The notes beneath the pieces were generated by a model, which was not told where the DNA came from, searched no databases, and worked only from the letters and a program-made list of their open reading frames with translations. From positions 1 to 64,000 of the forward strand of contig NZ_JAMQOQ010000008.1 of the NCBI RefSeq assembly GCF_031624635.1: DNA of 64,000 bases, written 5' to 3'. Made by a program: the position numbers and the translations under genes. Positions 46,169 to 63,988 of the stretch are shown piece by piece. How positions within the stretch are numbered: position 1 is the stretch's first letter; the number at the start of each line of letters is the position of its first letter. Source of the DNA: Halogeometricum sp. S3BR5-2. GTDB lineage: Archaea; Halobacteriota; Halobacteria; Halobacteriales; Haloferacaceae.

Positions 46169-46400
46169 AATACACACCACACGGGACGGCGCTGACTCCG
46201 ATGGACTGCGGTGGCGAAAGCCCGGCCGCGCAACGGCGCGCAGCGCCGTGAGCAGCCCGGACCGTGGAGGTGGTGGGAGGTGGCGGTGACCGCTACACAC
46301 CAGCAAAAAAGGGGCGCGTCGCCCTGGCTCCTCCTCGACCGGGATGTCTGAATCCCAACCAGACTACATTTATTGGTGCCCAAGTCGTAGTTTTCCCGTT

Positions 46401-46796
46401 ATGAAACCCGATACGCGCGAAATCATCAACGAGGAGCTCTGGCGGAGCGTCGTCTGGCTGGCCATCGGCCTGTTTGGCTGGTCGCTTATTCTCACGTCGA
46501 CGGATGTGCTTGCGGCATCAGCACTCACCGCGCTGGGATTACCTCTCCTCACGGCTGCGGTGCTGGCAGCCCTAATGGTTGGGATCCGTCTCGCGACTGG
46601 CTTGGAGTTAAAAGCGAAGACCGAAGGCAGCCAGCTCCTCTGGTTGATTGTCGGGAGTGTGCTCGGTGGATTCGTCGTGCTCTACGACGTGCTCGTGAAC
46701 GGACGTGGCCCACTCATCATCCTCGGCTACGCTGTCGCTGTCGGGTTCGGGGTCCTGATCTGGCGTGTTGCTCGGCGACAACAGTCGACAGTGTGA
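46401..46796 (+). CDS. Membrane protein, 131 residues
   Basis: Four hydrophobic helices ('VVWLAIGLFGWSLIL', 'ALTALGLPLLTAAVLAALMVGI', 'LLWLIVGSVLGGFVVLYDVLV' and 'LIILGYAVAVGFGVLIWRV'). No named family. ATG 46401 follows an A/T-rich promoter. Its stop overlaps the region of the next gene's GTG/ATG start. Confidence 0.6.
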   Translation: MKPDTREIINEELWRSVVWLAIGLFGWSLILTSTDVLAASALTALGLPLLTAAVLAALMVGIRLATGLELKAKTEGSQLLWLIVGSVLGGFVVLYDVLVNGRGPLIILGYAVAVGFGVLIWRVARRQQSTV

Positions 46797-46798
46797 GA

Positions 46799-47014
46799 AT
46801 GGATTGGCTCACTGCATACAACGGCCTCCTCGTTCGTATGGGACTGTATCTTTTGATTTTCTGGCCGACGGTCGGGTACTATGTGTACCGGGATTCGGTG
46901 AAACGAGGATTGTCCTCGCCGCAACTTCGCGGGGTCACGTATGGGTTCCTGGGAGTACCGGGGCTGCTCGTCTATTTGTACCGGAAATCTCGTGCAGAGA
47001 CGCAGTCAGCGTAG
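46799..47014 (+). CDS. Membrane protein, 71 residues
   Basis: Two hydrophobic segments ('GLYLLIFWPTVGYYVY' and 'GVTYGFLGVPGLLVYLY') and a charged tail. It starts right after the preceding membrane gene (ATG 46799; GTG 46793 overlaps the stop) and is probably co-expressed. No family recognised. Confidence 0.55.
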   Translation: MDWLTAYNGLLVRMGLYLLIFWPTVGYYVYRDSVKRGLSSPQLRGVTYGFLGVPGLLVYLYRKSRAETQSA

Positions 47015-47189
47015 CCGTCGAGGTATAGCCACAGAGAACGGTTCGAACAGCAGCATCTGCGGACAGTTGGACCCTATCAAACGAGCGCTATGTACGATAA
47101 GCCTCCCTCAACTCACCATCGCCTGTTTTCATCCCATAACATCGACCGACCACTCTAATTGGTAGTTACAGGGTATTGAGTGAGCCATC

Positions 47190-47573
47190 TCAATTGACAA
47201 TTGACGGCCCATACTGAAGAACCAGCCCAGGAATAATTACGCCGACGAGAATGAGGACGCCGACAAGCACCGTATACGGAAGAGCAGTGAAGGTACTCAA
47301 TCCGAGGAAGAGGGCCACCGCTACGAATACACAGACTGAAATCACAACGTTCTCGCGGGAAACAAGTGGTTCGTTCCGTACAATGATGACCATCGAAACA
47401 GCCAGCAGTACTAAAATCGCGATTACTGCAGCGGTGAACACCTGCATTGAGTCGATTGCAAGTCCGTAGAACAACCCCAGACCGGCGAGCACGTACGCAA
47501 GCCCCAAGGCTGCGAGCCCGGCCAACTCTGTGCGTGAACGGTCGGTTTCCTCGTTGTCCACAGTTGTTGGCAT
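47190..47573 (-). CDS. Membrane protein, 127 residues
   Basis: A charged 20-residue N-terminus precedes four hydrophobic helices. No family recognised. It faces the plus-strand small membrane gene at 47719 across a 145-bp A/T-rich gap. Confidence 0.6.
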   Translation of the reverse strand: MPTTVDNEETDRSRTELAGLAALGLAYVLAGLGLFYGLAIDSMQVFTAAVIAILVLLAVSMVIIVRNEPLVSRENVVISVCVFVAVALFLGLSTFTALPYTVLVGVLILVGVIIPGLVLQYGPSIVN

Positions 47574-47718
47574 GTGATTATTTTGATGGCCACGATATAA
47601 AACACCCTGTGCATTGTCGGGGAATTGATCGCTGAGACCAGCCTACAGTATTCGTTTGATAGAATCTCCATGTTGCATACAGGGAAAGTATTTCCCTCTC
47701 ACAGACAAGTATTAAGAT

Positions 47719-47964
47719 ATGCGATTTATGGGACTGGGGAAGTGGGAGATCGCCTCGATTCTGGCAATGGCGGCCGTTGCCGGTATTTTCGCGTATTCCC
47801 GGGCGGGGATGGGAGGTATCTCACTCCTTGTTAACGTACTTCTACAAGTCGTGATAGTTCTCGTCGTTGGAATCGGGTTCTTCCTGCTATTACATCATCT
47901 TGGCTTCTATCCCGGCATTGCGGACGACTACTTCGCTCGTCGAAAAGAGGACAAGAAAAAATAA
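47719..47964 (+). CDS. Membrane protein, 81 residues
   Basis: Two helices ('WEIASILAMAAVAGIFAY' and 'LVNVLLQVVIVLVVGIGFFLLL') and a basic C-terminal tail RRKEDKKK, likely cytoplasmic. No family recognised. Confidence 0.55.
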   Translation: MRFMGLGKWEIASILAMAAVAGIFAYSRAGMGGISLLVNVLLQVVIVLVVGIGFFLLLHHLGFYPGIADDYFARRKEDKKK

Positions 47965-48559
47965 GCACGCTCTACGTACCAGTCACGTCAGGAAGCATAG
48001 ATTGATCTCGACCTCTGGAGGGACTGTCTATGATCTCCTCTGTTAGTCCGTCTACAAGGTCGTGGCTGCGCGCGCAGCGAAGCGAGCACGGAGCGGAGGG
48101 TGGGGCGGTGGGGCTTGGGTCGGTCTGGCACACAGCAAAAAAGAGGGTTGCTTCGACTGGCTATTCTTCCCACCACCGACCGCGCTCTGGGAATTCGATC
48201 CGACTCCAGCCCGTGATCGCGAGACTGCACCGACCTTGGTACCAATTTCTTAGCGTACTTGAATTGGGCTTCCTCAATTCTTGAACCACCGCCTGCTCCG
48301 AAGGATGTTCTTCCTTGATATTCTGTAGATCAGGTACTATACAAATCTATGAACGGATTGTGGGAGAAGCTGTCAGTTCCGGTGGGTATTTCTAAGCCCG
48401 TGCTGTATAAACAGCGCATATTCAGCACGGAGGGGATGTCAGAATCATGCTGTCCGAATCGCTCAGTGTAGAGCCTACATTCAGCACGACTAGTCCTTTA
48501 TTTCACCCACTTCCTTCTGAACCAGCCGTTAGGTAGGTGTGCGAACTGAACGAGATGGT
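47965..48559. other. Gene-free region with a decayed RPA copy and IS-like repeats
   Basis: Contains a block (48057-48250) closely similar to the 3' end and downstream flank of the RPA gene (about 49985-50195), then a stretch with CGTGCTG/CAGCACG repeats near 48399-48490 that look like insertion-sequence ends. No functional gene seen. Confidence 0.6.
48161..48250 (-). pseudogene. Remnant of an RPA gene 3' end
   Basis: The frame ends 'GRCSLAITGWSRIEFPERGR' plus WWEE and a stop, nearly identical to the C-terminus of the RPA at 50104-50970. The upstream part of the gene is lost. Confidence 0.65.
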
Positions 48560-48757
48560 TCACCAGCGACGAGCGACTTCATAGGCTACTGTGGTTGGGA
48601 GGAGGACAACCAGTAAGACGAACGTGATTTCACCTGTTGTTGGGCCAGACTGCGTGAGGGCACTATAGACATAGAGTGCGGCGACAGCAAGCACACCGAC
48701 GATAGCTGTGACGTATTGAGGGTCGCTCCACGAGGACGGAAATTCTGAGCCGGACAT
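48560..48757 (-). CDS. Small membrane protein, 65 residues
   Basis: 'MSGSEFPSSWSDPQYVTAIVGVLAVAALYVYSALTQSGPTTGEITFVLLVVLLPTTVAYEVARRW': two hydrophobic helices with a short loop. No family recognised. Confidence 0.5.
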   Translation of the reverse strand: MSGSEFPSSWSDPQYVTAIVGVLAVAALYVYSALTQSGPTTGEITFVLLVVLLPTTVAYEVARRW

Positions 48758-48925
48758 ACCTTTCTAGTCTCCCGCTGATATGATATATCCTTCCTCTGTC
48801 TCGGTCACGACGCTTCTGACGGGAATCAGGGATGTTATGACCTAGTTTGTTCTATCGTTCATCTGTACTCACCTTTCGTTTGGTGGTTGCGCTGAAGGGT
48901 GTGCGAACTATCTCATTATCTGCTC

Positions 48926-49138
48926 TCAATTAGTGCATTTATGCTGCTGAATCCGTTCCGGTAGTCCGACTTTCCCACAGATAGGACACTCTTGCAGCGG
49001 TGTCGGCGGCAAGTTCTCCCATTCTCGCAACGCAGCCTTGAGATGCCACTGGACATCGTCTGATTCTGTACGAGTCAGTGCCTGCACGAGATACATTCGC
49101 AGCCGTTCGCGGCTTGTCGTTGTCTGTTGATCACTCAT
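48926..49138 (-). CDS. Small zinc-knuckle protein, 70 residues
   Basis: A helical N-terminus ('SRERLRMYLVQALTRTESDDVQWHLKAALREWENLPP') is followed by 'CPICGKVGLPERIQQHKC', a C2HC-type finger. Start ATG 49138. Hairpin element E13 lies 29 bp upstream. DNA- or protein-binding adaptor likely. Confidence 0.65.
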   Translation of the reverse strand: MSDQQTTTSRERLRMYLVQALTRTESDDVQWHLKAALREWENLPPTPLQECPICGKVGLPERIQQHKCTN

Positions 49139-49166
49139 AACTGGGTCCGAGAGGACGAATTGTATC

Positions 49167-49187
49167 GCCCTCCACCCTTTTGAGGGC
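49167..49187 (-). promoter_or_regulatory. Hairpin element E13
   Basis: GCCCTC/GAGGGC arms (6 bp) around the loop AAAAGGGTG; 5' flank GTTTGTCCT. The arms are unlike E2/E6, but pairing and loop tail are kept. Confidence 0.65.
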
Positions 49188-49271
49188 AGGACAAACCTCA
49201 CGCTGCACGCTCACCTTCCTCGTCTTGGGAGCGCGTACACCGAAGCAAGTACTGAGTCGAGCTCGATCTGA

Positions 49272-49901
49272 CTACTTCGGTGAGTACTCCATCCCCCAGA
49301 GTTCCTCGAAATACTCGAGTGTGTATTTCCCTCGACTGCCACCTTTGTACGAGTTGAACCGGTCGACGTAGTACATCACCTCAAGAAAGCCTTCTTTCTC
49401 GTGATGGACGCCCTGGTCCATCCGGGGCAGAATCTCGTCGAGGAGGAGATCGACCTGTTCGCGCTTGACGATGAACTGATCGCGGAGCGGGGTCAGGAGC
49501 GTCCGTGTATTGCTGATACCCTGCACGCCCCAAATGTACTGATCGCTCCGGTTCTCATTGGATTCGAGACTGGACACATGACAGTTCACGCCGCGAGCAT
49601 CACAGTACGCACAAAGCGCCTCCATCAGGTGGTCACGATACGTCTCGGTGACCTCGATCTGCGGCTGAAGTCGATGGTCGACTCGATACTCACTATTCTG
49701 ATCTACTTTCACGCCAATCCAGCCTTCTGCGTCGAGAGTTCCAGTCAACTGTTCGTGGGTGATTCGGAGCATTGGTGCAAGTTCAAAGCCGGTACTGTAC
49801 CGCTCTCGGTCGGCAATTGAGATACGGATACAGCCCTCGCCGTCGAAGAAGCCAGTGAACCACGCATCGAAATCATGGGTCTCGGATGAACTGTTGGACA
49901 T
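49272..49901 (-). CDS. LAGLIDADG-type endonuclease-like protein
   Basis: A 209-residue protein: 'FDAWFTGFFDGEGCIRISIADRERYSTGFELAPMLRITHEQ' carries the LAGLIDADG helix (FTGFFDGEG) with its acidic residue. A second, weaker motif may be 'DGV'-less, so it could act as a homodimer or be a degraded two-motif enzyme. Standalone rather than in an intron or intein as far as visible. It may be a homing nuclease or plasmid-specific factor. Element E11 directly precedes its ATG. Confidence 0.75.
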   Translation of the reverse strand: MSNSSSETHDFDAWFTGFFDGEGCIRISIADRERYSTGFELAPMLRITHEQLTGTLDAEGWIGVKVDQNSEYRVDHRLQPQIEVTETYRDHLMEALCAYCDARGVNCHVSSLESNENRSDQYIWGVQGISNTRTLLTPLRDQFIVKREQVDLLLDEILPRMDQGVHHEKEGFLEVMYYVDRFNSYKGGSRGKYTLEYFEELWGMEYSPK

Positions 49902-49925
49902 CGCGCTGCGCCCATCGGCGGCGCG
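49902..49925 (-). promoter_or_regulatory. Hairpin element E11
   Basis: CGCGC/GCGCG arms around a loop with CCGATGGGCGCA; 5' flank GTTTGTC. It ends directly at the ATG of the LAGLIDADG gene. Confidence 0.6.
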
Positions 49926-49984
49926 GACAAACTCTCACTGCTACACATTGACCTCCCAGAAGAGGTCAACTCACCTTCCCATCC

Positions 49985-50100
49985 TACCTCACGGTCGTGG
50001 CTGCGCGCGCAGCGACCATTGGGAGCGAGCACGGAGCGGAGGGTGGGGCGGCGGGGCTTGGGTCTGGTCCGGCACACAAAAAAGAAAGAGACTGCGTCGC
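49985..50100. repeat. GC-rich repeat downstream of the RPA gene
   Basis: The block (GCTGCGCGCGCAGCG, then GAGGGTGGGGCGG, GGGGCTTGGGT and CACACAAAAAAG) recurs at 48057-48140 and in weaker form at 46214-46305. High similarity outside coding DNA suggests a functional RNA or DNA element, or recent duplication. Confidence 0.6.
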
Positions 50101-50103
50101 TCG

Positions 50104-50970
50104 CTATTCTTCCCACCAACGGCCGCGTTCTGGGAACTCGATACGCGACCACCCGGTCAGCGCGATTGAGCACCGGCCTTCGTACCAGTTCTTGGCTGCT
50201 GCCCGGAACCGGACCGTTTCGCCTTCCTGCACCACTGTCTGCTGCGATTTCTCCCAGCAGGTGAACTTGATTTTTCCACTGTCATCCGCTATCAGCCCGA
50301 CTTGCTGGATGCTTGAGGAGGAAGGCTCCCAGAGGGTCTCGATTGTTCCTTCGACCGTCACTTCCCCGACGGGCACGTCCGGCACATCTGCGACGGGCAC
50401 GATTGCACCGGGAACTGCCTTCAGTTCCTCCAACGTCTCCAGCACCGCCTTGGTCACGTCCTGGCCGCGTTCCACCCTCTCGGCCAACTGCTTCGCGACG
50501 ACCGCTCTCGACCAGCCGCCCTGCACTTCGTCGCTGATCCGCATCGCCTGCTCGTTGACCGCCGCGAGTTCCTCCTGCGTCAGCTTCTCTCGGGGATCCG
50601 TGCGCTCCACCGGTTCGGGCTCGTCTCGGCCACACTGCTCGACGACGACCTTTCGCGTCCGCTTCGCGCGTCCCTCCTGCTGACTGAGTTCCGCCTGGGC
50701 ACTGATGTGCTCCAGCTCGGCTTCCCGGGCCTCGATGCGCTCTTCCTGTTCGAGGGTCTTCCCGAACAGGTGATCCGGGCCTTCCTCGACCCGCGCGTCC
50801 GGATGGTTGGAATCGACTTTCGCCTGCACTTCCATGTCGACCGTCGCCCGGAACTCCGGCGTCCCGTCGACGACCTCGAACCCATCCTCGTCGACCTCGA
50901 CGTCATCGTGTTTCTCGAAAGCCTGTTCATCGACCGAAACTACATCCGTGGTGACGTTCTTACTTGACAT
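50104..50970 (-). CDS. Replication protein A-like single-stranded DNA-binding protein
   Basis: A 288-residue RPA relative. The N-terminal half is charged ('EVVDGTPEFRATVDMEVQAKVD...KTLEQEERIEAREAELEHISAQAELSQQEGRAKRTRKVVVEQC'). The C-terminal OB fold spans 'VTVEGTIETLWEPSSSSIQQVGLIADDSGKIKFTCWEKS...VRFRAAAKNWYEGRCSIALTGWSRIEFPERGRWWEE'. ATG 50970 (MSSKNVTTD) fits. It coats single strands during plasmid replication. A remnant copy is at 48161-48250, and two large hairpins lie upstream. Confidence 0.85.
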   Translation of the reverse strand: MSSKNVTTDVVSVDEQAFEKHDDVEVDEDGFEVVDGTPEFRATVDMEVQAKVDSNHPDARVEEGPDHLFGKTLEQEERIEAREAELEHISAQAELSQQEGRAKRTRKVVVEQCGRDEPEPVERTDPREKLTQEELAAVNEQAMRISDEVQGGWSRAVVAKQLAERVERGQDVTKAVLETLEELKAVPGAIVPVADVPDVPVGEVTVEGTIETLWEPSSSSIQQVGLIADDSGKIKFTCWEKSQQTVVQEGETVRFRAAAKNWYEGRCSIALTGWSRIEFPERGRWWEE

Positions 50971-53407: not shown

Positions 53408-53876
53408 ACAATAAACAGTCGCCATAGCCATCCATTCTCAGGCACGATGTCGACCTGCTCCCTCACCCTCCACGCCCCACGCCATCGTCTGGGTGGCAGC
53501 CTACTCTCGCTTGGCCTGCGGCCTGGCACCTCGGCCCTGTTGGCCGCGAACGCAACTTTGGGCGGCCACCCCCACCATATATCGGTTGATTTTTCGGCTG
53601 TCAGGTCTCCTCAAATCGCAAGACGGCGTGGCCTGACAGCTGATTTGATAGAGCAGGCGAGATCACACCTATTCGGAGACAGCTGTCTAGTGGAGCCGTC
53701 TTGCGGTTTTGGATGTAGATTCCGGTAGAGTTCTGACGGCTGTCTAGTGCCGTTCGGAGGAGGTGTCAGGTTACTACGTCGGCCGAATGATTCCATATCT
53801 CATCCTCTCAAAGTGGTCTACTATTGTCCGGATTTCTTCTCCCGAATACCACTTCTCGAAAGCTGAGGATTGGATT
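53408..53876. other. Gene-free region with clustered inverted repeats
   Basis: Holds GCTGTCAGG (53597-53605)/CCTGACAGC (53632-53640), GCAAGACGGC (53618-53627)/GCCGTCTTGC (53695-53704) and the palindrome GACAGCTGTC (53678-53687), plus a repeated GGCTGTCTAGTG-like word near 53682 and 53741. No gene. A recombination, origin or partition site is possible. Confidence 0.5.
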
Positions 53877-56800
53877 TCAATCGTCCTGCTCGTCAGAAAT
53901 AAGATCCAGAGAGTAGCGAATGGCCTCCTCGGTGCGATATGGATCTATCGAAGCTTTCCGCTTAACCGCGTCTCCATGTGCTAACGGATTCTCGAGTACT
54001 GCCAGTTCATACGACCCGTCCTCGCTGGATCCATCATACACTCGATAGAGATAGAACCGGTCTTGATGGGTCAGGGCTTGTTGGACCTGGCCGTCATCCA
54101 AAGTTACGTATCCCTGTTGACTTGTACTGCTTTTCACCTCGATATATCGATCTATGAGGGTTCTGTCAGGGTCTGATTCGAATGCCTCTTTGCGTTCCTC
54201 CGTCTCAAAACTCAATACGTCACACCCATAGCTTTCGCTTCCTTGGATATGTGAAACGAGGATTGGGAAACGTCCCGCGTCAATTTCGAACCAGTATGCG
54301 AGTTTTTCGGCTCCTTCAGAATCGGGTACATCGTATGTTCCCGATGTCGACCGGCTCTGTGATGTCTGGGATGTTCGGCGAATCGTGATGGATCTTCCCT
54401 TCACCGGGTCGAAGCCCTGTTGCTTTGATGAGACGCCCTCTATCGATTCGTCGATGCCAGATTGTGCTGTCGAAGCAGATGTTTCGTCAGCTGTCTGTTG
54501 GGAATTGACAGCCGATCCGTCACGCGAGGGGGTATCTCCCGATCGCTCTCTTTCTGTTTTCTTGGTTCGATCCATTCCGTCCGTGACTTCAGGCGCAGTG
54601 AAAACCGAGTCCGACTCTACAGAGGTTTCACCTGTGAGGTGCGCTCTAGATTCACGTAAGCGCTTATGCGCGGATTCGTCACCTAAGAGCACCTCCAAAC
54701 GCTGACTCCGATCATTTGCTGTTGCGAGCGAGAGAATATCCTTGCTCAGCTTCTTATCAAGGATATCTGAAAAAACATCTCCGACCAACCGAGCAAGATG
54801 GTCATCAGTCACCTGTGGTCTCCCGTCGAGAATATCGGGCACAACATACACTGTCGAATCGTCAATGAGGTACGATCCTGGTTGAAGTTCGATATCGAAG
54901 GTATCGCTACCAACTGATGCAGTCGCCTTTACCGCGTTACATAGGACGATCTCTGCGTCGCGTATCGCCCGTAGCTCCCGGCGATTATCGTCGCCATCAA
55001 CTCTGAAGGCGTAAATGAACGGCTTCAACTCTTCAACCTCCTGCGAAAACTCGTCCATATACAGGTGGTGGTCGTAGTCGACGTCTGAAATGTTGATATC
55101 AGAGTTTGTGAGCCCCTCTACGCCGAAGAACTGTTTCACCTTCTCAGTACCTTGGCGGTTATCGAGCCTCAGTGAGGGGTATCTGTCCTCAACTGGTGCA
55201 GGAATTGAGTCGGTGTTTGTGTATCGCAGCTCGGACACCGGATAGTACCCTTCGACTCCCTCGTGAGTTCCGAACATTTCCCCATTCTCAACGAAATCAG
55301 CACGCAGAGATGCTGGTGGAGTCTCGTCACTTTCGCGGTTCTTTAGCAAGGTTCGATAGACCCGCTTTGCCACCTTGCCGTCCGGATCCCGATCAGGAAG
55401 GTTAAACAGAATTTCGTAGAACGATTCCCACGAAAGATCGGCGAGTGTATTCGTTACACCCAGGTCTCGGAGCGTTTTGGAGATGTCAGTTTCGTCAACA
55501 CCCAGTTCGGAGAAGAGCGGATATTCTGGATCTACTGCCGGATATCCAACTAATGGCGAGATATCCTCCGCTAACGATGCTGTCGAGCAAGTCTGTGGAG
55601 TCTGAAGATCCGTCTCCCCACTTTGGACAGGAAGCCACATGCTCGTTCGGAGAATCCAGTAAGGGTGGGATGGTACAGACTGCTCGTTAAGCGATTTCCA
55701 ATTTTGGTGGTACTTGGGTTTGATCTCAAGTATCGCGTCTGATCCATTCTTCCGCCACCGATTGGTCGTCTCTGGAATCGTCGCAAGCCACGCGAGTATC
55801 GCATACGGATGTGCGCTTTCGACGATCTCCTCAAGTCGGTCGACTGTCTCGACCCTTCGTAGCCGATAATTCCGTGTCGACGTAACGTCATTCGGGGTTT
55901 CTTTTGTTTCACTCCCGAACTCAGCTGGATAGTCTAATGTCTCGAGGACGTGGTCAAAGAAGTCAGAATTACTCATCTCATGTTGCTCTAATCGCGGCTC
56001 ATCGGCGACACCCAACCAAAGCAAGAACGACTCTAGCCTGCTCAAATCGTCACAGAAGTCTAATTCTGTGGGACTTACGACGAACAGCTCCTGATCTACT
56101 GACTCATACAGATGTTCGACCAATTTGCCGTTGGGGTACTCACCCGTTAGATAGAGAGAGTTGGCCTTTGCGAAAGTCCCGGTACGTGTCGGAATAAAAA
56201 TCGAGACTTCTGAGAGGCTCACGCCCTTAGCACCGGCTTCGTAGAGGTTCCATAGCCCCCGTAGCATCTTTCGGCGCCAATGTGCCTCTGACTCCGGATC
56301 CTGAGAAACGCGGTCGTTCGCTTCAGTGACAACCGCTTGGACTAACCCTGAAAGCTCGTACTCACGAATATTAAACGACGATAGCTTCATTCGCAAATCT
56401 CGAATACTGGTTAATCCCCAGTTCGACTGCAGCTTTGATGCAAGATCGGGGTGAAGAATATCTCTTGGAACCCATGAAGGGAGTGTAATCGACTCCCCTT
56501 GTGGTGGGAGGAATGTCGTTCGTTCAGACGGGATTGTAGTACCCTCGCCATCGATCAGAAGACGCGGTGGAGTCTCGTCTCCAATGAGATTATTATCGAC
56601 GAGACGGGTGATGATGCCTGCTCGGGCTGTCATAGACAGGTCGCTTGAAATACTATCGAGTCGGGTTCGTAGGTCTGTGTAGTCGATGTATCCAACGTCT
56701 AGACGATCCAGCTGGTTCCTCACATCATGACTATTCGTGTGCAGACAGACATCGTCGAATAGCTCTCCTTGGAGTAGGTCATCAAAATCACCGGAAATCC

Positions 56801-58112
56801 GCTTTGCCTGTGCGGGGGTTGTAAAGGAACCATCCTGCACTGGAATAAGAGAACGCGTAGCAACTTTTGACTCAAGCAACTGCTTGAACGAGGTTTGGTC
56901 TTCATCCGGTGCTCCGAGGTTGTTTAGCGTAGAACCGATTGGTCCAGTGGGTGAAACTGTACGGAGAGCGGCCCACGGGGTTTCTTTAGATCGGTGGTCC
57001 TCCGCTGCATCAATCATCTTCGACGCTAATCGTTCAGCGACGAATCGATTAGCATCGCTCTCTATCAGGTGATTTCGTGACTCTGTCACCTGAAACGTGG
57101 CGTGCGCCAACATCGGAAATGGGAACGAGACCTTGGTAGGGAAGAAAACAAAGAGATCAGATGGTAGCTTTGTCCATCCGGTGTCCTCGGGGATAGCGAT
57201 TTTAATCTCGTACCGGTCTTTAGTTTGCGAAGTGGTGGTATATTCCTCCGGAATTTCTCCTGAGTCTTCGAATATTTTCCACGTAGTCGGTTCACCGCTG
57301 CCGTGGTCAACAATAACTTTCTCCTCACCGCGTTCGACACTCCAATCCTCTTCTCGTTCTGGACTGCGAATACGAAGATCGTCTACGCTCCGTAGGAACA
57401 GCGTGAGCTCTTTGAAGAGGGAGTTGATCTCCTTCTGAACTTGGTTCCGACTACCGCTGTCAAACAGAGGAATGCAGATTACAGTGTCGTATCCTTGGGC
57501 CTTGATTTGTTGCCCTTGTTTGTAGACTTCCTCAAAACGTGTATCTACAACGTCGCTCTCTGAGAGAAGTCGTGGCGTGCTCAGCGTTGCGATTGGACTT
57601 GAGGCACCCCGCTGCTCGTATCGCTTAGCTTTCCTATCAATTTCGTCGTTTTCGGCACGGAGTTTGTTTAAAAACTCAGATGCGAATTGGTCCGAGAATC
57701 CGATCGATACGTCCCCGCTGTGTATGAGTACGTCCGAACTCCAATTCAAAATAGACCGAAATCCAAGTCCCTTGTAGCCGATACACTCCTCCCGGAATTG
57801 TTTCGGGCTATTGTCGCTGAGCATTAAGGAACTGATTCCCTCGCGGGAGAAGGGGTCCCCACTATTAGCGACGAATAGGCCTTCCTCTGTCAGTTCTATC
57901 AGGACATCAACCGAACCGGACGATTCCCAGCCGGCATCGTCAGCGTTCTGAATGAGCTCCAGTAGTCCACGACCAGAATATCCGTCAATATGCTTCGTCT
58001 CTCGATTATAGTCCGAAAAGAGTCGATCCTCGTCACGATGGTAGACGTCTTCCATCTTCTGGAGTTGGTCTTCCACCCAACTCCCCCATTCTTCAGACGA
58101 AGTATTTGGCAC
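53877..58112 (-). CDS. Giant HSP90-like ATPase (sacsin-type) with C-terminal DUF3883 nuclease-like domain
   Basis: A 1411-residue protein. The GHKL ATPase lies in the first 250 residues: E52 and N55 in 'LLELIQNADDAGW', the ADP-site D86 in 'VANSGDPFSREGI', and the lid 'GYKGLGFRSIL' (112-122). A long helical middle has no named domain. Residues about 1280-1400 resemble DUF3883, with D and E/K in 'YGCDVLSFETEE...RYIEVKSSTSQQ', a PD-(D/E)xK-like set. The gene looks A/T-richer than its neighbours, suggesting recent transfer. Such fusions are suspected defence proteins. Confidence 0.75.
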   Translation of the reverse strand: MPNTSSEEWGSWVEDQLQKMEDVYHRDEDRLFSDYNRETKHIDGYSGRGLLELIQNADDAGWESSGSVDVLIELTEEGLFVANSGDPFSREGISSLMLSDNSPKQFREECIGYKGLGFRSILNWSSDVLIHSGDVSIGFSDQFASEFLNKLRAENDEIDRKAKRYEQRGASSPIATLSTPRLLSESDVVDTRFEEVYKQGQQIKAQGYDTVICIPLFDSGSRNQVQKEINSLFKELTLFLRSVDDLRIRSPEREEDWSVERGEEKVIVDHGSGEPTTWKIFEDSGEIPEEYTTTSQTKDRYEIKIAIPEDTGWTKLPSDLFVFFPTKVSFPFPMLAHATFQVTESRNHLIESDANRFVAERLASKMIDAAEDHRSKETPWAALRTVSPTGPIGSTLNNLGAPDEDQTSFKQLLESKVATRSLIPVQDGSFTTPAQAKRISGDFDDLLQGELFDDVCLHTNSHDVRNQLDRLDVGYIDYTDLRTRLDSISSDLSMTARAGIITRLVDNNLIGDETPPRLLIDGEGTTIPSERTTFLPPQGESITLPSWVPRDILHPDLASKLQSNWGLTSIRDLRMKLSSFNIREYELSGLVQAVVTEANDRVSQDPESEAHWRRKMLRGLWNLYEAGAKGVSLSEVSIFIPTRTGTFAKANSLYLTGEYPNGKLVEHLYESVDQELFVVSPTELDFCDDLSRLESFLLWLGVADEPRLEQHEMSNSDFFDHVLETLDYPAEFGSETKETPNDVTSTRNYRLRRVETVDRLEEIVESAHPYAILAWLATIPETTNRWRKNGSDAILEIKPKYHQNWKSLNEQSVPSHPYWILRTSMWLPVQSGETDLQTPQTCSTASLAEDISPLVGYPAVDPEYPLFSELGVDETDISKTLRDLGVTNTLADLSWESFYEILFNLPDRDPDGKVAKRVYRTLLKNRESDETPPASLRADFVENGEMFGTHEGVEGYYPVSELRYTNTDSIPAPVEDRYPSLRLDNRQGTEKVKQFFGVEGLTNSDINISDVDYDHHLYMDEFSQEVEELKPFIYAFRVDGDDNRRELRAIRDAEIVLCNAVKATASVGSDTFDIELQPGSYLIDDSTVYVVPDILDGRPQVTDDHLARLVGDVFSDILDKKLSKDILSLATANDRSQRLEVLLGDESAHKRLRESRAHLTGETSVESDSVFTAPEVTDGMDRTKKTERERSGDTPSRDGSAVNSQQTADETSASTAQSGIDESIEGVSSKQQGFDPVKGRSITIRRTSQTSQSRSTSGTYDVPDSEGAEKLAYWFEIDAGRFPILVSHIQGSESYGCDVLSFETEERKEAFESDPDRTLIDRYIEVKSSTSQQGYVTLDDGQVQQALTHQDRFYLYRVYDGSSEDGSYELAVLENPLAHGDAVKRKASIDPYRTEEAIRYSLDLISDEQDD

Positions 58113-58267
58113 ACAATCAGACAGTCGGGCAGGGGATTTATTGGTGTTGACCAGATTTCCGATTGAGCGGTTCCTAAGGGCCGAGAGATTGGATCGGTTG
58201 TAAGGAGATGGGGAAATCTTCAGTACTGACTCATATTATATTCTGTAGGTCGTATTGAGGAGCTCCT

Positions 58268-60292
58268 CTACCGGTTGAACGAAACTATTTGTTTCGCTCG
58301 ATCCAGAGGGGACGGACCGTCAGTCTCGTTTTTTTCTTCTCCCGATTTGAGATCCTGTTCCGACTCTCGATCCTTGAGAGCGGACTCCAATCGATTCCGT
58401 TCTGCGCGTACCGTGGTTAGTTCCGTTCGGAGCTGGTCAATCTCCGCTTCCAGATCTTCAATTTCCTCTGATTTCTCGTCCAATTCAGACTCGAGTTGCT
58501 CAACCTTCGCTGACAGCAGCCGGTTCTTTTCGCGAAGGTGAACACGGTTCAGGTCACTCGTTGTCTCACCGCTCTCAGGGGCTTCAGTACCCGTTGTCAA
58601 TTCCTCATCCTCCTCTTCCTCTTCGGGCTGGACTGGCTCTCGGCCGTGCTGCAGCCCCGCCGCTTCGATGGCTTCCAATGTCTCGTTGTAGGTTTCGTAC
58701 CCGGGGAATCCCTCGTAGGTTCCTTCCTCACCCTCACGATCGACGAACGCGTCCTCTGGACAGATCTCGAGCGCGACAGCTGCTTTCCGAACGGCCCAGA
58801 AGGGCATCTGGTCGTAGGTTCCGCCGTCGACGCGGTCTGACCCGACGTCTGGAACCCACACCGGAATGTCGTAGCCGGCGCTCCGCAGTTCATCGACGGC
58901 CGCCCAGTAATCCTCCCCATCGAGATCCGCATCGGCGTCGGAGATAATCCCCGTCGCGAGCGCCATTAGCTTCGCCGGCCCGCCCCCGGCGTTCACCTTC
59001 GAATCGCCGAAGGTGTTGGCCTGCTCGTCGACGAAACAGGACTGCCCGCTTTCGCTGTGCCGCCAGCATGGGTCGAACTGCGGCCGCGGCTGGTTTGGAT
59101 CCGTATCGTAGGCATCGCTCGCGTAGTGCCGGGCGATCTCGGTGATGTCGATATTCTCGACAGCCTCGTAGACGTCCTCTTTGAACGGCGTAATGGGCCG
59201 GCCTTCGAGGGCGCCATCGAGTTCTGCCATCCGCTCCTCACGTCGCTGAAGCGCCGCCTCACGCTGTCGCTCTCGCTCCCGTTCCCGCTCGCGCTCCGCT
59301 TCGATCCACGCCTCCAGCGTTGTCCGCCACCCGTCGTGGTCCTCGTACAGATCCGGCCAGAGCGTCGCGACCAGCGAGTCGACGGAGTCTGTGTGCTCAA
59401 CCTGCGTGAGCTCGTCGGCCCAGCTGACGGCCTGCTCGATGAGGGTGTCATCGACGGTCTCGAACGGACGGAGCTCGTAGCGAACGTCGTCGGTCGTGAT
59501 GGGCGTGACGACAGCATCGTGATCAGCGTGAACCGACAGCGGCGGCTTGTACTGCCGATTCTTGTTGTTCACCCAGTCGGGCTGGATGACGTCGCCGGCG
59601 CCGTCGATGCGTTCGTTCACGCGGGCCTCTGCCTCTTGGAGCCACGCGTTCGAGCGGTCGAGAAACTCGTCGAATACCCGTTGGAGCGCATCCGGATCAT
59701 CGCTGAAGTGATCCGCAATCGGGAGCGTGGCCTCCGGGGCTCCGAAAATGTACGCGCCCCCGACGGAGTCCAGCGCATACACAGCGTCTCGCGTGCCGTA
59801 CAGCGTTGCATACTCCTCGATGTAGGCCTCGAGGGTCCGCTCCACGAGGGTACGCGTCTCGGCATCGAGGTGGTCACGTTGCGGCTTGATATCATCAGCG
59901 AGGTCAATATCGCCCCAAGCGGGAACCGCCCGGATGTCGGCATACCCGGGGGTCGGGGGCTCATCCTGCCAGACGGTCGTCCCCTCGGATTGGTCGTACC
60001 GACAAGGTTCCCACCGCTGGAAGGCCGACGGCGTCTTGTAGGTGGTGACGGCATAGAGGGTCCGTTCGAGGCGGTCGTGAATCTCGTCGTAGTCGCGATC
60101 GAGGCGGGTAACCCGCCCGCGCTGCGGATACCCGGCCTTGATCGCCTCCACGTCGTCGTGGTCGCGTTTGATGTACCACCCGACGAAGTCGTTCAGCCCG
60201 ATGGTTGGATAGTCTTTGACGGCCGCCAGCGCCTCGTAGACGGGTTTGGCGCGACGGTAGTGCTCACTGATAGCTGATTTTGAGAGCGTCAT
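58268..60292 (-). CDS. Large plasmid protein, primase-like candidate, with coiled coil
   Basis: A 674-residue protein. The N-terminal 300 residues contain 'GLNDFVGWYIKRDHDDVEAIKAGYP' and 'YALDSVGGAYIFGAPEATLPIADHF', reminiscent of archaeo-eukaryotic primase-polymerases, but I cannot place the catalytic Asp/His set with certainty. Residues about 330-355 are an Arg/Glu helix. A region 'FDPCWRHSESGQSCFVDEQANTFGDSKVNAGGGPAKLMALATGIISD' resembles primase-associated zinc/C-terminal segments. The last 100 residues are a coiled coil. It follows the ATPase gene by 39 bp, with E14 between. Confidence 0.5.
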   Translation of the reverse strand: MTLSKSAISEHYRRAKPVYEALAAVKDYPTIGLNDFVGWYIKRDHDDVEAIKAGYPQRGRVTRLDRDYDEIHDRLERTLYAVTTYKTPSAFQRWEPCRYDQSEGTTVWQDEPPTPGYADIRAVPAWGDIDLADDIKPQRDHLDAETRTLVERTLEAYIEEYATLYGTRDAVYALDSVGGAYIFGAPEATLPIADHFSDDPDALQRVFDEFLDRSNAWLQEAEARVNERIDGAGDVIQPDWVNNKNRQYKPPLSVHADHDAVVTPITTDDVRYELRPFETVDDTLIEQAVSWADELTQVEHTDSVDSLVATLWPDLYEDHDGWRTTLEAWIEAERERERERERQREAALQRREERMAELDGALEGRPITPFKEDVYEAVENIDITEIARHYASDAYDTDPNQPRPQFDPCWRHSESGQSCFVDEQANTFGDSKVNAGGGPAKLMALATGIISDADADLDGEDYWAAVDELRSAGYDIPVWVPDVGSDRVDGGTYDQMPFWAVRKAAVALEICPEDAFVDREGEEGTYEGFPGYETYNETLEAIEAAGLQHGREPVQPEEEEEDEELTTGTEAPESGETTSDLNRVHLREKNRLLSAKVEQLESELDEKSEEIEDLEAEIDQLRTELTTVRAERNRLESALKDRESEQDLKSGEEKNETDGPSPLDRAKQIVSFNR

Positions 60293-60298
60293 CTCGTG

Positions 60299-60325
60299 TG
60301 CTCCTGCACCTCCTGAGCGGGAGCA
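60299..60325 (-). promoter_or_regulatory. Hairpin element E14
   Basis: TGCTCC/GGAGCA arms around a loop with TCAGGAGGTGCA, the best Shine-Dalgarno-like loop in the set. It ends 6 bp before the start codon, in the 39-bp gap after the ATPase gene. Confidence 0.55.
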
Positions 60326-60331
60326 GAACGA

Positions 60332-63300
60332 TTACACACTGACATCGGTCGATTCCTCCCGGTCGCCGGCGTCGGCCAGCTCGATTCCGACGTAACACCG
60401 TTGCGTCTGTCCGTCCAGCCACTTTTTGCCACGCTCGAACTCAGCGTGGTCACGAAGGGCCTGTGTGAACCGGGTTTTCGGCTTCACCTCGTACTCCTCT
60501 GTCGCCGCATACTGCTCGTACGCATCGTAGACATCGGCGACTGCGACGACCCCGTCGTCGGATTCAACGATGCTATCGCGGACGAATGCTTGGATGCCGA
60601 ACGGATCGTTCTCGTGGTCTTCCTGAGTCATGGATTGCTCATCGGCAGGTTCGTCTGGCTCCACACCTGCCAGATGGAGTTCATTATTTTCGATCGCTTC
60701 TGTGAGCGCAGCGAGGTCTTTGGTCGCGTCAGAGTCCGGGGTGTAGAGCTCGAGATTCTGCTCATCCCCGATGACGCCTATCGCATACGAGTCACCCGTG
60801 TACTCCGGAACGGGTAGGTCGGTACTGGGCACGAACGGGCGCTTGACAGGTACCCAGTCCGCTTCGAATGCCTCGCGGGACTCGTAGGTCTCGGGGAGTT
60901 CTCCCGGCCTGAAGACGGTGTATGTCTCGCTCTCGGCGTCGTAGCTGTATGTCGCCGGGAACTGATCTTTCGACACAGCGTCGAAGGAGTCGATCCGGGC
61001 GTGCTGGTCTCCGGCACTATCCTGGAGGACGAACGCACCGTCCCGCTCGAACCAGCGGGTGTGGCGACTGCCGCCAGTGGCCGGTCGGACGGCCGTCACT
61101 CCATCCGCGGCTCGCGCACCACCGTTGAATGTGACGTTGTGGTTCATCGTATACAGCCGCGTCTCACCGGATGAGAGCTGATTTCGCGGCTCGCGGAGGA
61201 TCTTCGCGAGCCGGTCGGCAATCTCGGCAGCCGGTTGATCGTCGTGGTCTGCGACGACGAACAGCGGGATTCGCTCCTGTTCCTGGGCTTTCCGGAGGTT
61301 CGAGAGGACCTTCGCCGGCCGGACGTGGGTGGTGGTTTCGACCTCCACCTGGAGCTCCCTGTCGAGATCCGGATGCGTCGCGATGGCGTCGGGGCGGGAC
61401 TCCCCGTTCTGATCGAGCACCTCCACGGAGAACCCCGTAGTTGCGAGCGACTGCTCGACCGTTTCAAGAACTGAATCGTGGTGCTCGCCCCCGCCGGTCG
61501 GTGACGTTGACGTGTCGGGCGTGGCTGCCTGCTCACCCTCATCCGTGAGCCGACACTGAACTGACGATCCCCCGTCCGGGAGATCGACCTCGATGAGCGA
61601 GGACGCCTCCCGCACCTCCGGAAGCGTCTCGTAGCCCTGCGCCTCGATAGTGCCTTCCTCGATGCGCGAGAGCAGTTCCTCGTCGACGTCCTCGACAGAC
61701 ACCCAGCCGTTCGTTTCGCGGACGTTGTTCGACAGCTGGACGGCGCGGATCGCACGGGCCATCGCGACCTCCAACGGCAGATCGTCGGCGTTCTCCAGAG
61801 CGACGTCAGTCGCCGCGTCACGGCTCTCCACGGTCGTCCCGCCGGCGACCCCGTACTCCTCGCGGGTATGCTCGTGGACGGCCTCCAGGGCGTCTTGGAA
61901 CCGCTCTTCCTGCGCCCCGGTCAGAGGCTGCTCGCTATCGGGATGCCCGGGCGGAATCGGGAGGGGTTCGATACTGAACGGGTCCGGGCCGGTTTCGCCG
62001 AACTCCGGACTCGGGAGCTGAGCGATCCACTCGCCACGCGGGAGTGAACTGATCCGATTCTTGAACTCGACGGGATCCATCGCCTCGTGTGAGAGTGCCT
62101 CGGCGATGTCGGCGTCGACGGCGATCTTCCCGACGAGCGGACTGCCGATGTTGTTCAGGACGTTCAGATAGACCTCGCGGTTGCCAGCCTCCTTCATCTG
62201 CTCGGGGAACTGCGTCACGAGTTCGATGGATAGCCGGAACTCCCGCCCCTTTTCGAGCAGCGTCGTCAGCGTATCCGAGACGACGACGGAGGACGCTTCG
62301 TCGATGAGCAGGTTCGCCACGTAGTCGTCCGGCTTGCGGGCCAGCTCGTCGCCGTCGCGACGCTTGACGGCGTCGTAAAGCTGCGTCAGAATAACGCCGG
62401 TCATCACACGGGCGGCCTCGTCGCGGAGATCGCCGAGGTCGAAGATGACCACCTTGTCCTCGTCGAGGAGGTCGCGGAAGTCGAACTGCGACTGGGTATT
62501 GTTGAAGATCCGTCGGAGGTGGGCGTCCTGCGTGATGTAGTCCATCCGGTTGCTGATGCCACTCACGACGTTCGAGAACGTCGCCGGGTTCGAGCGCAGG
62601 TGTCGCTCCAGTTTCTCCGCGACTTGCGGGTCGCTGGCTCGCGGTGCATCTTCGGGTGTCGAATCTGGTGGGCCGGCGGCATGGAACTGGGTCACCGCCT
62701 GCTCGAACTGGTCGTGGGTGAAGTAGTTCGTATCCTGCCGGAAGTGTCCGTTTTCGAGGCCGTACTCCTCGTCGTACATCGCCTTAATGAGGTACTTGAT
62801 GAGCGTCGGCGAGGCGATGGCGTCCTCGTACCGCTCCGGCCCCATCACGAGCTTGATGAGCTCCTCGTAGTGGTCGGCTTTATCCTGGATCGCGTCGACG
62901 CGACGGACTCCATCCTCGAGCGCCGGCGTAATGTCGAAGAACGCGAAGCCAGGCAGGATGTCAGGCACCGAGAAGTGGAGGACGTTCTCCTCGAGGTCCT
63001 CAGTCCCGAACCGCTTCGCGTGAGCCCGCATATAGTTCTCGGGGAGGTTCCCGCCCTTGGAGTCGATGAGGAACACTGGGCCCGTGGTATGGTCGTACAG
63101 GGAGAGCGCGTCGTTGATCAGCGCGACCGATTTACCGGCGCCGCTCTTCGCGAACCGGCCGACGTGAAACGGCAGCAAATGCGGAGGAATCCGCATCGGC
63201 TCTGACGTGGGCGTGCCGTCCTCCCCGAGCCCGCGGCCGATCGCCATCCCGGAGTCCGTGAACGCATCCATGTGGTCCTGCGCCGGGAGCGGCAGGGGCG

Positions 63301-63988
63301 TCCGGCTCTCGGGTTCGGCGTCGGACCCCCGCCCGCCCTCGGTCGTGAGGTCAGTCGCCGGTGGAACGACCACGAAGTTCGCCAACTCAGCCGGCCCGAG
63401 GACGAGATCGGGTCGTGTTTTCCGCCAGTCGCTCTTGGTAGCCAACGTAGCGTTGAGTACCCGGTCGGCGTGCTTCTTGGCCCGCCGCCCCTTTCGAAGC
63501 CCACGGCGAATGCGCTTCGGTCGGAGTCGATAGTGTGGCCCGTTCAGGTGGTCAAACACGGACCCGATATCGTCGAGACGATGGTCAACCCGCTCTCGTT
63601 GTCGGTCGGAGGTCACGAGAGAAAGTGCCCGCAAATTCACCGTGAACGTGTGCTGTGGCTCCTTCTCGTCGATAGCCTCGACTCGCTCCCGCCCACCGAT
63701 GTCGAGATACCGACGCTGTCGCCCGGTGTTCGACGGGCTCTGTGGTTCGTTCTCCGTATTCCCGAGGAGTTCTCCGAAGAACCAATCGACGACCCGGTCT
63801 TCGCCTTCACGGAGCTTCCGCTGGCGCTCTCGTGCCTCGTGCGTCCAGTCCGATTTCCGCTGAAAGAGTACCTGGAAGGCGATCGGGTGTTCGGCCCGGG
63901 TCAGCTGATCGATGAGTGACGCGAGCGGGGCCCGAGCGTGATCGTCATCGTCGTCTTCCGTATTCGTGAATTGGGGTAGTGTCGTCAT
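60332..63988 (-). CDS. HerA/VirD4-like DNA-transfer ATPase with nuclease-like and winged-helix C-terminal parts
   Basis: A protein of at least 1218 residues. Walker A is 'GRFAKSGAGKSVALINDALS' (from 277), followed by 'GPVFLIDSKGGNLPENYMRAHAKRFG'; Walker B is 'NLLIDEASSVV' (near 560). This is the pattern of HerA/FtsK/VirD4-type DNA pumps. Near residue 870, 'ESRPDAIATHPDLDRELQVEVETTTH' looks like a PD-(D/E)xK-type core. The C-terminus ('FVRDSIVESDDGVVAVADVYDAYEQYAATEEYEVKPKTRFTQAL') resembles the winged helix of D5/primase-helicases. The frame is open upstream of 63988 to the window edge, so the start may lie outside. Probably the coupling or segregation motor of the element. Confidence 0.75.
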   Translation of the reverse strand: MTTLPQFTNTEDDDDDHARAPLASLIDQLTRAEHPIAFQVLFQRKSDWTHEARERQRKLREGEDRVVDWFFGELLGNTENEPQSPSNTGRQRRYLDIGGRERVEAIDEKEPQHTFTVNLRALSLVTSDRQRERVDHRLDDIGSVFDHLNGPHYRLRPKRIRRGLRKGRRAKKHADRVLNATLATKSDWRKTRPDLVLGPAELANFVVVPPATDLTTEGGRGSDAEPESRTPLPLPAQDHMDAFTDSGMAIGRGLGEDGTPTSEPMRIPPHLLPFHVGRFAKSGAGKSVALINDALSLYDHTTGPVFLIDSKGGNLPENYMRAHAKRFGTEDLEENVLHFSVPDILPGFAFFDITPALEDGVRRVDAIQDKADHYEELIKLVMGPERYEDAIASPTLIKYLIKAMYDEEYGLENGHFRQDTNYFTHDQFEQAVTQFHAAGPPDSTPEDAPRASDPQVAEKLERHLRSNPATFSNVVSGISNRMDYITQDAHLRRIFNNTQSQFDFRDLLDEDKVVIFDLGDLRDEAARVMTGVILTQLYDAVKRRDGDELARKPDDYVANLLIDEASSVVVSDTLTTLLEKGREFRLSIELVTQFPEQMKEAGNREVYLNVLNNIGSPLVGKIAVDADIAEALSHEAMDPVEFKNRISSLPRGEWIAQLPSPEFGETGPDPFSIEPLPIPPGHPDSEQPLTGAQEERFQDALEAVHEHTREEYGVAGGTTVESRDAATDVALENADDLPLEVAMARAIRAVQLSNNVRETNGWVSVEDVDEELLSRIEEGTIEAQGYETLPEVREASSLIEVDLPDGGSSVQCRLTDEGEQAATPDTSTSPTGGGEHHDSVLETVEQSLATTGFSVEVLDQNGESRPDAIATHPDLDRELQVEVETTTHVRPAKVLSNLRKAQEQERIPLFVVADHDDQPAAEIADRLAKILREPRNQLSSGETRLYTMNHNVTFNGGARAADGVTAVRPATGGSRHTRWFERDGAFVLQDSAGDQHARIDSFDAVSKDQFPATYSYDAESETYTVFRPGELPETYESREAFEADWVPVKRPFVPSTDLPVPEYTGDSYAIGVIGDEQNLELYTPDSDATKDLAALTEAIENNELHLAGVEPDEPADEQSMTQEDHENDPFGIQAFVRDSIVESDDGVVAVADVYDAYEQYAATEEYEVKPKTRFTQALRDHAEFERGKKWLDGQTQRCYVGIELADAGDREESTDVSV

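What the first reader, a model, noticed from the sequence alone, without database searches (positions are those of the whole stretch)
53877..58112. Giant HSP90-like ATPase fused to a DUF3883 nuclease-like domain: candidate defence gene
GHKL residues and an E-x-K core are both intact in a 1411-residue protein whose base composition seems A/T-richer than the neighbours. Single-gene ATPase-nuclease fusions of this type are found in defence islands, but this one's action is unknown to me.
Basis: inference. Interest (0 to 1): 0.6.

Follow-up and report, generated by a model that had tools for sequence, protein, structure and literature searches.

The report
Plasmid-borne Tiamat defence protein in haloarchaea
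A large plasmid of a salt-loving archaeon carries an intact gene for a giant ATP-using, probably DNA-cutting protein of a known but mechanistically unexplained antivirus family (Tiamat), moved around as a single-gene cassette; it is a new member of a known kind, with useful clues to how the family works.

Summary
In detail: 53877-58112 (-) is an intact 1411-codon gene, the most A/T-rich of the larger genes in the window (GC3 0.52, mean 0.73). It is not an orphan: it is a full-length TmtA, the sole gene of the Tiamat defence system (PADLOC PDLC03964, 950 bits, E 1e-285). Anatomy: a sacsin-type GHKL ATPase (Hsp90's adenine-binding Asp replaced by Asn, as in human sacsin), a ~765-residue middle region of unknown fold, a polar linker, and a C-terminal DUF3883 nuclease-like domain with D...ExK. 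ATP-site residues and ExK are invariant in 14 homologues; dN/dS against three close copies is 0.11-0.17. It sits in a cargo slot of a haloarchaeal plasmid backbone: empty in one relative, holding a 30-nt tmtA scar in another and a very divergent TmtA in a third. In two other haloarchaea the same ~4.3-kb unit lies in a different context, in one near McrBC. Neighbours of ten chromosomal haloarchaeal TmtA genes match defence models more often than control neighbours; a plasmid count showed no excess. Antiviral activity is untested, both structure predictions failed, and the mechanism (ATP-closed clamp gating a tethered nuclease) is inferred. New member of a known kind.

The parts
53877..58112 (-). 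tmtA: Tiamat-family protein, 1411 aa, GTG start
56958..58112 (-). residues 1-385: sacsin-type GHKL ATPase domain plus the following segment with R346, candidate for the Hsp90 Arg380 / sacsin Arg474 position (my assignment)
   Evidence: sacsin comparison from PMC9880540
57933..57959 (-). N-box ELIQNADDA, residues 52-60
54663..56957 (-). residues 386-1150: middle region, no Pfam or PDB match, low-confidence model
54348..54662 (-). residues 1151-1255: polar linker with the highest dN of the protein against the window's close copies
53880..54347 (-). residues 1256-1411: DUF3883 (NOV_C) PD-(D/E)XK-like nuclease domain
54132..54140 (-). E1325-V-K1327 catalytic core; the candidate metal-binding D1298 is at 54219-54221
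58137..58154 (-). 18-bp upstream block, identical in window and L015 and with two changes in L014 and G141, with AATAAA ending 24 nt before the start codon: likely TATA element of a leaderless promoter (inference)
53837..58187 (.). unit shared at 94-95% identity with L014 and G141, where the surroundings differ: the mobile single-gene cassette (right edge 58170 with G141, 58187 with L014)
53712..58264 (.). content of the plasmid cargo slot, bounded by conserved flanks (left flank to 53709-53711 in L039, L040, L041, L057; right flank from 58265-58267 in L037 and L041)
53440..53711 (.). conserved noncoding module bordering the slot, with repeats of the type TGTCTAGTG and a 30-nt inverted repeat (53613-53642 / 53680-53709)
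58268..63988 (-). plasmid backbone genes next to the slot: 674-aa protein and VirD4-like ATPase (T4SS-DNA_transf)

Best explanation
The gene encodes a full-length TmtA protein, i.e. a single-gene Tiamat antiviral system, carried as exchangeable cargo on a haloarchaeal plasmid of the pNG600 type. Proposed working: the sacsin-type GHKL domain binds ATP and closes, with R346 from the next segment completing the site, probably by N-terminal dimerisation as in other GHKL proteins; the middle region senses something made during infection (most likely foreign or replicating DNA); the closed state brings the DUF3883 PD-(D/E)XK nuclease, held on a flexible linker, onto DNA, which it cuts. Shown here: family membership by profile, intact and constrained ATP and nuclease motifs, single-gene mobility, cargo-slot position. 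Inferred: antiviral activity of this copy, dimerisation, the sensed signal, DNA as substrate. The confidence given is for the identification as a Tiamat defence protein; for the mechanism as stated I would say about 0.45.
For: PADLOC TmtA E 1.2e-285 over residues 5-1172. DUF3883 above gathering. ATP-site residues E52 (13 of 13 with a letter), N56, D59, N83, F88, K104, G112, G115, G117, T210, R346 and nuclease E1325/K1327 all 14 of 14; D1298 12 of 14 as aligned. The Asp-to-Asn and Met-to-Phe changes at the adenine site match those in sacsin (PMC9880540, sections read). Best PDB profile hits of the N-terminal part are sacsin structures 5v44-5v47, E 0.008-0.017. dN/dS 0.05-0.12 in the ATPase part and 0.07-0.17 in the nuclease part, leaving out the near-identical pair L014-G141. 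Cassette 53837-58187 in a different context in L014 and G141, where G141 has McrB- and McrC-like genes nearby. Neighbour enrichment: 22 families among 87 proteins against 1 among 90, including two Argonautes. Literature: DUF3883 called a novel REase domain (PMC3710099, passage); GHKL plus nuclease modules in restriction systems proposed to loop DNA (PMC2292703, abstract and passages).
Against: No activity data for this protein. The plasmid annotation count gave no excess of defence genes (4 of 8 TmtA sides against 4 of 8 control sides). The AlphaFold models are too poor to show either fold (pLDDT 39 and 45). The nuclease profile finds no convincing PDB relative (best E 0.03). Nothing identifies the trigger or the substrate. 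The neighbour test covers the whole TmtA family, mostly longer subtypes, not only this one.
Confidence: 0.72

Rival explanations
1. Abortive rather than direct defence: the activated nuclease cuts host nucleic acid (DNA or RNA) and stops the infected cell, with the ATPase acting as a switch.
For: Same anatomy; the single gene has no methylase or other self-marking partner in its cassette, so self/non-self discrimination must come from the trigger. Sequence cannot tell DNase from RNase.
Against: PD-(D/E)XK domains are mostly DNases (general knowledge), and DUF3883 is found fused to a SNF2 helicase in R-M operons (PMC3710099).
Confidence: 0.3
2. Plasmid competition: the protein protects the plasmid by removing rival plasmids or conjugating DNA, not viruses.
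For: It sits between transfer genes and a conserved noncoding module of a conjugative-type plasmid, and other full-length homologues are on plasmids. A bacterial homologue lies next to a T4SS cluster.
Against: Homologues also lie in chromosomes and in a phage-like contig (L070); of the 12 slot loci read 8 carry other cargo and one none, so the backbone does not need it.
Confidence: 0.15
3. A housekeeping chaperone of the sacsin/Hsp90 type with a degenerate nuclease-like tail.
For: Sacsin-type ATPase.
Against: Nuclease motif invariant in 14 of 14 and constrained; patchy distribution, 36 of 194 class genomes and 0 of 14 controls; moved as a cassette.
Confidence: 0.04

Closest known systems
Tiamat (TmtA), PADLOC PDLC03964
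   Same: Profile match at 950 bits over residues 5-1172; single gene; sacsin-like ATPase N-terminus; homologues hitting the same model end in DUF3883.
   Different: Compact version: the best stretch covers 1147 of 1538 profile positions, while several haloarchaeal members of the same model are about 2000 aa and match the full profile. The experimentally tested Tiamat (Millman 2022, recalled; paper not held) was not compared.
Sacsin (human SACS) Hsp90-like ATPase repeats
   Same: ATP-site residues, including the Asn for Hsp90 Asp79 and Phe for Met84.
   Different: One copy, not three; ends in a nuclease-like domain instead of DnaJ and HEPN domains (sacsin architecture from PMC3710099).
Prokaryotic MORC/paraMORC and MutL GHKL-nuclease systems (PMC2292703)
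   Same: A GHKL ATPase coupled to an endonuclease in restriction-type systems.
   Different: No MORC or MutL Pfam match at E <= 1; sacsin-type, with a long middle region without known relatives.
Other DUF3883-like defence proteins (PADLOC PDC-S36, HmaA, PD-T4-1 models)
   Same: The C-terminal domain matches these models: PDC-S36 for the window, HmaA for G173, PD-T4-1 for the Hymenobacter homologue.
   Different: Only the nuclease-like module is shared; E-values are weak (2e-4, 2e-4 and 8e-6).

Membership tests
Tiamat (TmtA) | match to a TmtA profile over most of the protein | tested here: met
   PDLC03964 E 1.2e-285, residues 5-1172
Tiamat (TmtA) | single-gene system | tested here: met
   gene plus flanks of about 40-75 bp is the only shared unit between contexts
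Tiamat (TmtA) | location near other defence genes | tested here: inconclusive
   family in chromosomes: 22 families among 87 proteins against 1 among 90; plasmid annotation count: no excess; this copy itself sits in a plasmid cargo slot
Tiamat (TmtA) | antiviral activity | not testable with these tools
   needs an infection assay
sacsin-type GHKL ATPase | E, N, D of the N-box, Asn at the Hsp90 Asp79 site, GxxGxG box, catalytic Arg | tested here: met
   the Arg346 assignment is mine by position and invariance
Hsp90 chaperone | Hsp90 family domain match | tested here: not met
   no such family at E <= 1
MORC / MutL | MORC S5 or MutL domain match | tested here: not met
   no such family at E <= 1
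PD-(D/E)XK / DUF3883 nuclease | NOV_C match with D...ExK | tested here: met
PD-(D/E)XK / DUF3883 nuclease | PD-(D/E)XK three-dimensional core | tested here: inconclusive
   model pLDDT 45, no fold search made; PDB profile search without a convincing hit
PD-(D/E)XK / DUF3883 nuclease | nuclease activity | not testable with these tools
   needs purified protein

The most novel reading that the evidence does not exclude
Tiamat proteins are sacsin-type ATP clamps that gate a tethered restriction-like nuclease, a further GHKL-nuclease lineage beside MutL and paraMORC; and the slot beside the conserved noncoding repeats of pNG600-type plasmids is a renewing entry point where very different Tiamat subtypes have landed independently as single-gene cassettes.
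Probability: 0.3. Interest if true: 0.55.

Novelty: new member of a known kind. Interest (0 to 1): 0.36.

Why it matters
A 2026 review read here still lists Tiamat among systems of unknown mechanism (PMC12926258, passage). A compact 1411-aa haloarchaeal member with its catalytic residues named, natural copies 5-7% diverged at the DNA level, and an empty-slot plasmid as natural control makes the ATPase-to-nuclease idea directly testable, and it ties the sacsin ATPase to a prokaryotic defence protein.

Tried and rejected
Partner gene: the adjacent 674-aa gene (58268-60292) was considered as a partner and rejected; it belongs to the plasmid backbone and lies outside the unit shared with L014 and G141.

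Plasmid annotation control: counting regions with an annotated restriction, Dnd-type, Druantia, Abi, Argonaute, BREX, DNA-methylase or SIR2 gene gave 4 of 8 on the TmtA side (Agrobacterium, Hymenobacter, Salinigranum, Haloterrigena) and 4 of 8 on the opposite side of the same plasmids (Haematobacter, Methylorubrum, Salinigranum, Haloterrigena). SIR2 alone is the reason for Methylorubrum; other toxin-antitoxin, HEPN and RecB-like genes were not counted. So that test shows no enrichment.

Chromosomal neighbour test: ten TmtA loci were taken from the 36 genomes with a match; proteins over 1200 aa were left out, and genes were called by a home-made codon-score script. Distinct matching proteins are not listed by the tool: three were confirmed as separate defence matches (two Argonautes, one IetA) plus one TPR protein, among ten scanned singly, and the classes named would make up to ten; one-sided Fisher p against 1 of 90 runs from 0.17 (four) to 0.004 (ten).

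Structure: both AlphaFold jobs gave unusable models, so no fold search was run. PDB profile of the middle region: nothing useful. Repeat-motif counts in the window for the noncoding module are no higher than chance; its support is conservation only. Viral contigs: the single-protein search found none, the alignment search one full-length and two partial relatives.
Full report
What is there. The ORF at 53877-58112 (-) is real and complete: 1411 codons from a GTG that is replaced by ATG in two close copies. The copies in L014, L015 and G141 have the same composition (GC 0.503-0.506), below the rest of their loci.

What it is. Against PADLOC, the protein matches TmtA model PDLC03964 at 949.6 bits, E 1.2e-285, over residues 5-1172, with weaker hits to eight other TmtA models. 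Pfam sees NOV_C/DUF3883 at residues 1291-1364 (above gathering) and SACS weakly; NCBIfam sees the sacsin N-terminal ATP-binding domain above its cut-off. That the Tiamat system consists of tmtA alone, and that it was shown to protect bacteria in Millman et al. 2022, is recalled; that paper is not held.

Active sites. In an alignment of 14 homologues (window, three close copies, G173, G182, four bacterial plasmid proteins of the same model, and four more distant ones, including the 2171-aa Halorientalis protein), N56, D59, N83, F88, K104, G112, G115, G117, T210, R346, E1325 and K1327 are present in 14 of 14; E52 in 13 of 13 with a letter (the Hymenobacter row starts too late); D1298 in 12 of 14, with two rows poorly aligned there. 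The four near-identical rows are not independent. A study of sacsin reports the same replacement (Hsp90 Asp79 to sacsin Asn160, 1526, 2592), with Phe in place of Met84 and Lys at the Gly100 position; TmtA has N83, F88 and K104 (PMC9880540; sections 6 and 9 read, passages). R346 is my candidate for the Hsp90 Arg380 / sacsin Arg474 role, by position and invariance only. A profile of the N-terminal part has sacsin crystal structures as its best PDB matches, at marginal E 0.008-0.017.

Constraint. Nei-Gojobori dN/dS between the window gene and L014, L015 and G141 is 0.17, 0.11 and 0.15 over the whole gene; in these comparisons the linker has the highest dN; the very close L014-G141 pair gives 0.27, from few changes. 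The gene is under selection as a protein in several hosts.

Cassette and slot. The window is the first 64 kb of a 148-kb contig. Its right part matches haloarchaeal plasmids such as Haloarcula marismortui pNG600, Halorubrum pCBA1229, Halorientalis marina and Halobellus limi, but none of these DNA matches covers tmtA beyond its last 30 nt. Twelve loci with this backbone stretch were read: tmtA of this type in two (window, Haloarcula japonica L015); a 2171-aa protein in Halorientalis marina that is also TmtA but of another model (PDLC03971, E 1.6e-169), with its own GxD...ExK near the C-terminus; nothing in Halobellus limi (91 bp between the flanks); and other cargo in eight (a 660-aa protein in pNG600, in the H. 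roseum plasmid, whose stretch has the same gene layout, and in G024; 650 aa in Haloplanus rallus; small genes in Halobaculum XH14; 286 aa in G051; permease and regulator in G049; a YcaO/TOMM cluster in pCBA1229). In pCBA1229 the DNA at the slot's left edge keeps the region downstream of tmtA and the last 30 nt of the gene, a scar of a lost copy. So tmtA of either type is in 3 of 12, a scar in 1 of the other 9. Arrival of two so different TmtA proteins in one slot suggests a hot spot, though defence genes are common cargo in any case. In Halorubrum amylolyticum (L014) and G141 only 53837-58187 and 53837-58170 are shared with the window near this gene: from about 40 bp past the stop to about 60-75 bp before the start. 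There the neighbours are an SRAP gene and a Cdc6-type gene, and in G141 an AAA_5 (McrB-like) and a McrC (PF10117) gene follow. The upstream edge holds an 18-bp conserved block with AATAAA ending 24 nt before the start codon, which fits a leaderless haloarchaeal promoter (inference).

Spread and neighbourhood. PDLC03964 matches 36 of 194 genomes of the class at E <= 1e-20 and none of 14 control genomes. Plasmid tblastn finds 27 records, three covering 80% or more, all below 60% identity. A phage-like IMG/VR contig carries a full-length relative (27%) beside an integrase-like ORF (the integrase reading is from the sequence by eye, not from a profile search). Neighbour test: 87 neighbours of ten chromosomal TmtA loci match 22 PADLOC families at E <= 1e-20, among them Argonautes, IetA, a type II enzyme and several candidate systems; 90 neighbours from places 300 kb away in the same contigs match one (HerA). 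The plasmid annotation count did not show an excess (see Tried and rejected). Published: in Pseudomonas, Tiamat and type IV restriction dominate one island hot spot (PMC12629846, passages), which the G141 arrangement resembles; Tiamat was predicted by PADLOC in one Halococcus strain, and the same paper cites 20 of 382 archaeal complete genomes as having it (PMC13321033, passages). No paper on a Tiamat mechanism was found by searches, in a library that lacks most subscription journals and preprints.

How it probably works. GHKL ATPases of MutL, topoisomerases and MORC-like restriction proteins are thought to use ATP to reshape complexes and loop DNA, often with a linked nuclease (PMC2292703, abstract and passages). 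By analogy TmtA would close on ATP and bring its tethered DUF3883 nuclease to foreign DNA. The ATP site and nuclease site are shown to be present and constrained; closure, trigger and substrate are inferred.

Verdict. Confirmed and named: a haloarchaeal Tiamat. Ordinary in kind, useful for mechanism.

Noticed in passing
window 53440-53711: Noncoding module conserved in 7 of 7 loci aligned, with TGTCTAGTG-type repeats and a 30-nt inverted repeat; could be a replication, partition or transfer site beside the cargo slot.
   Followed up: partly
window 46344-50104 and the same place in L036-L041: A second variable slot between the TFIIB-like gene and the OB-fold gene, with different cargo in most of these plasmids.
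   Followed up: no
window 43682-44941 (+): 419-aa protein matching Cas12f models (E 1e-50), probably a TnpB of an IS200/IS605-type element (the TnpB reading is recalled knowledge).
   Followed up: no
window 49272-49901 (-): Homing-endonuclease-like ORF (PADLOC HEase, E 2e-11).
   Followed up: no
L036 and L042: Plasmids of Haloarcula marismortui and Halobaculum roseum, different families, have the same gene layout here and mostly the same protein accessions: recent transfer or a record mix-up.
   Followed up: no
L015 7444-9844: The 674-aa backbone gene is called as two ORFs in Haloarcula japonica: frameshift or draft error.
   Followed up: no
L097 13226-18076 and L068 3049-7893: An Argonaute with a ~706-aa neighbour lies near TmtA-family genes in both G053 and a Salinigranum plasmid.
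   Followed up: no
L062 14410-20721: In Haematobacter a second giant sacsin-like protein (2103 aa, SACS E 6e-20) follows tmtA directly.
   Followed up: no
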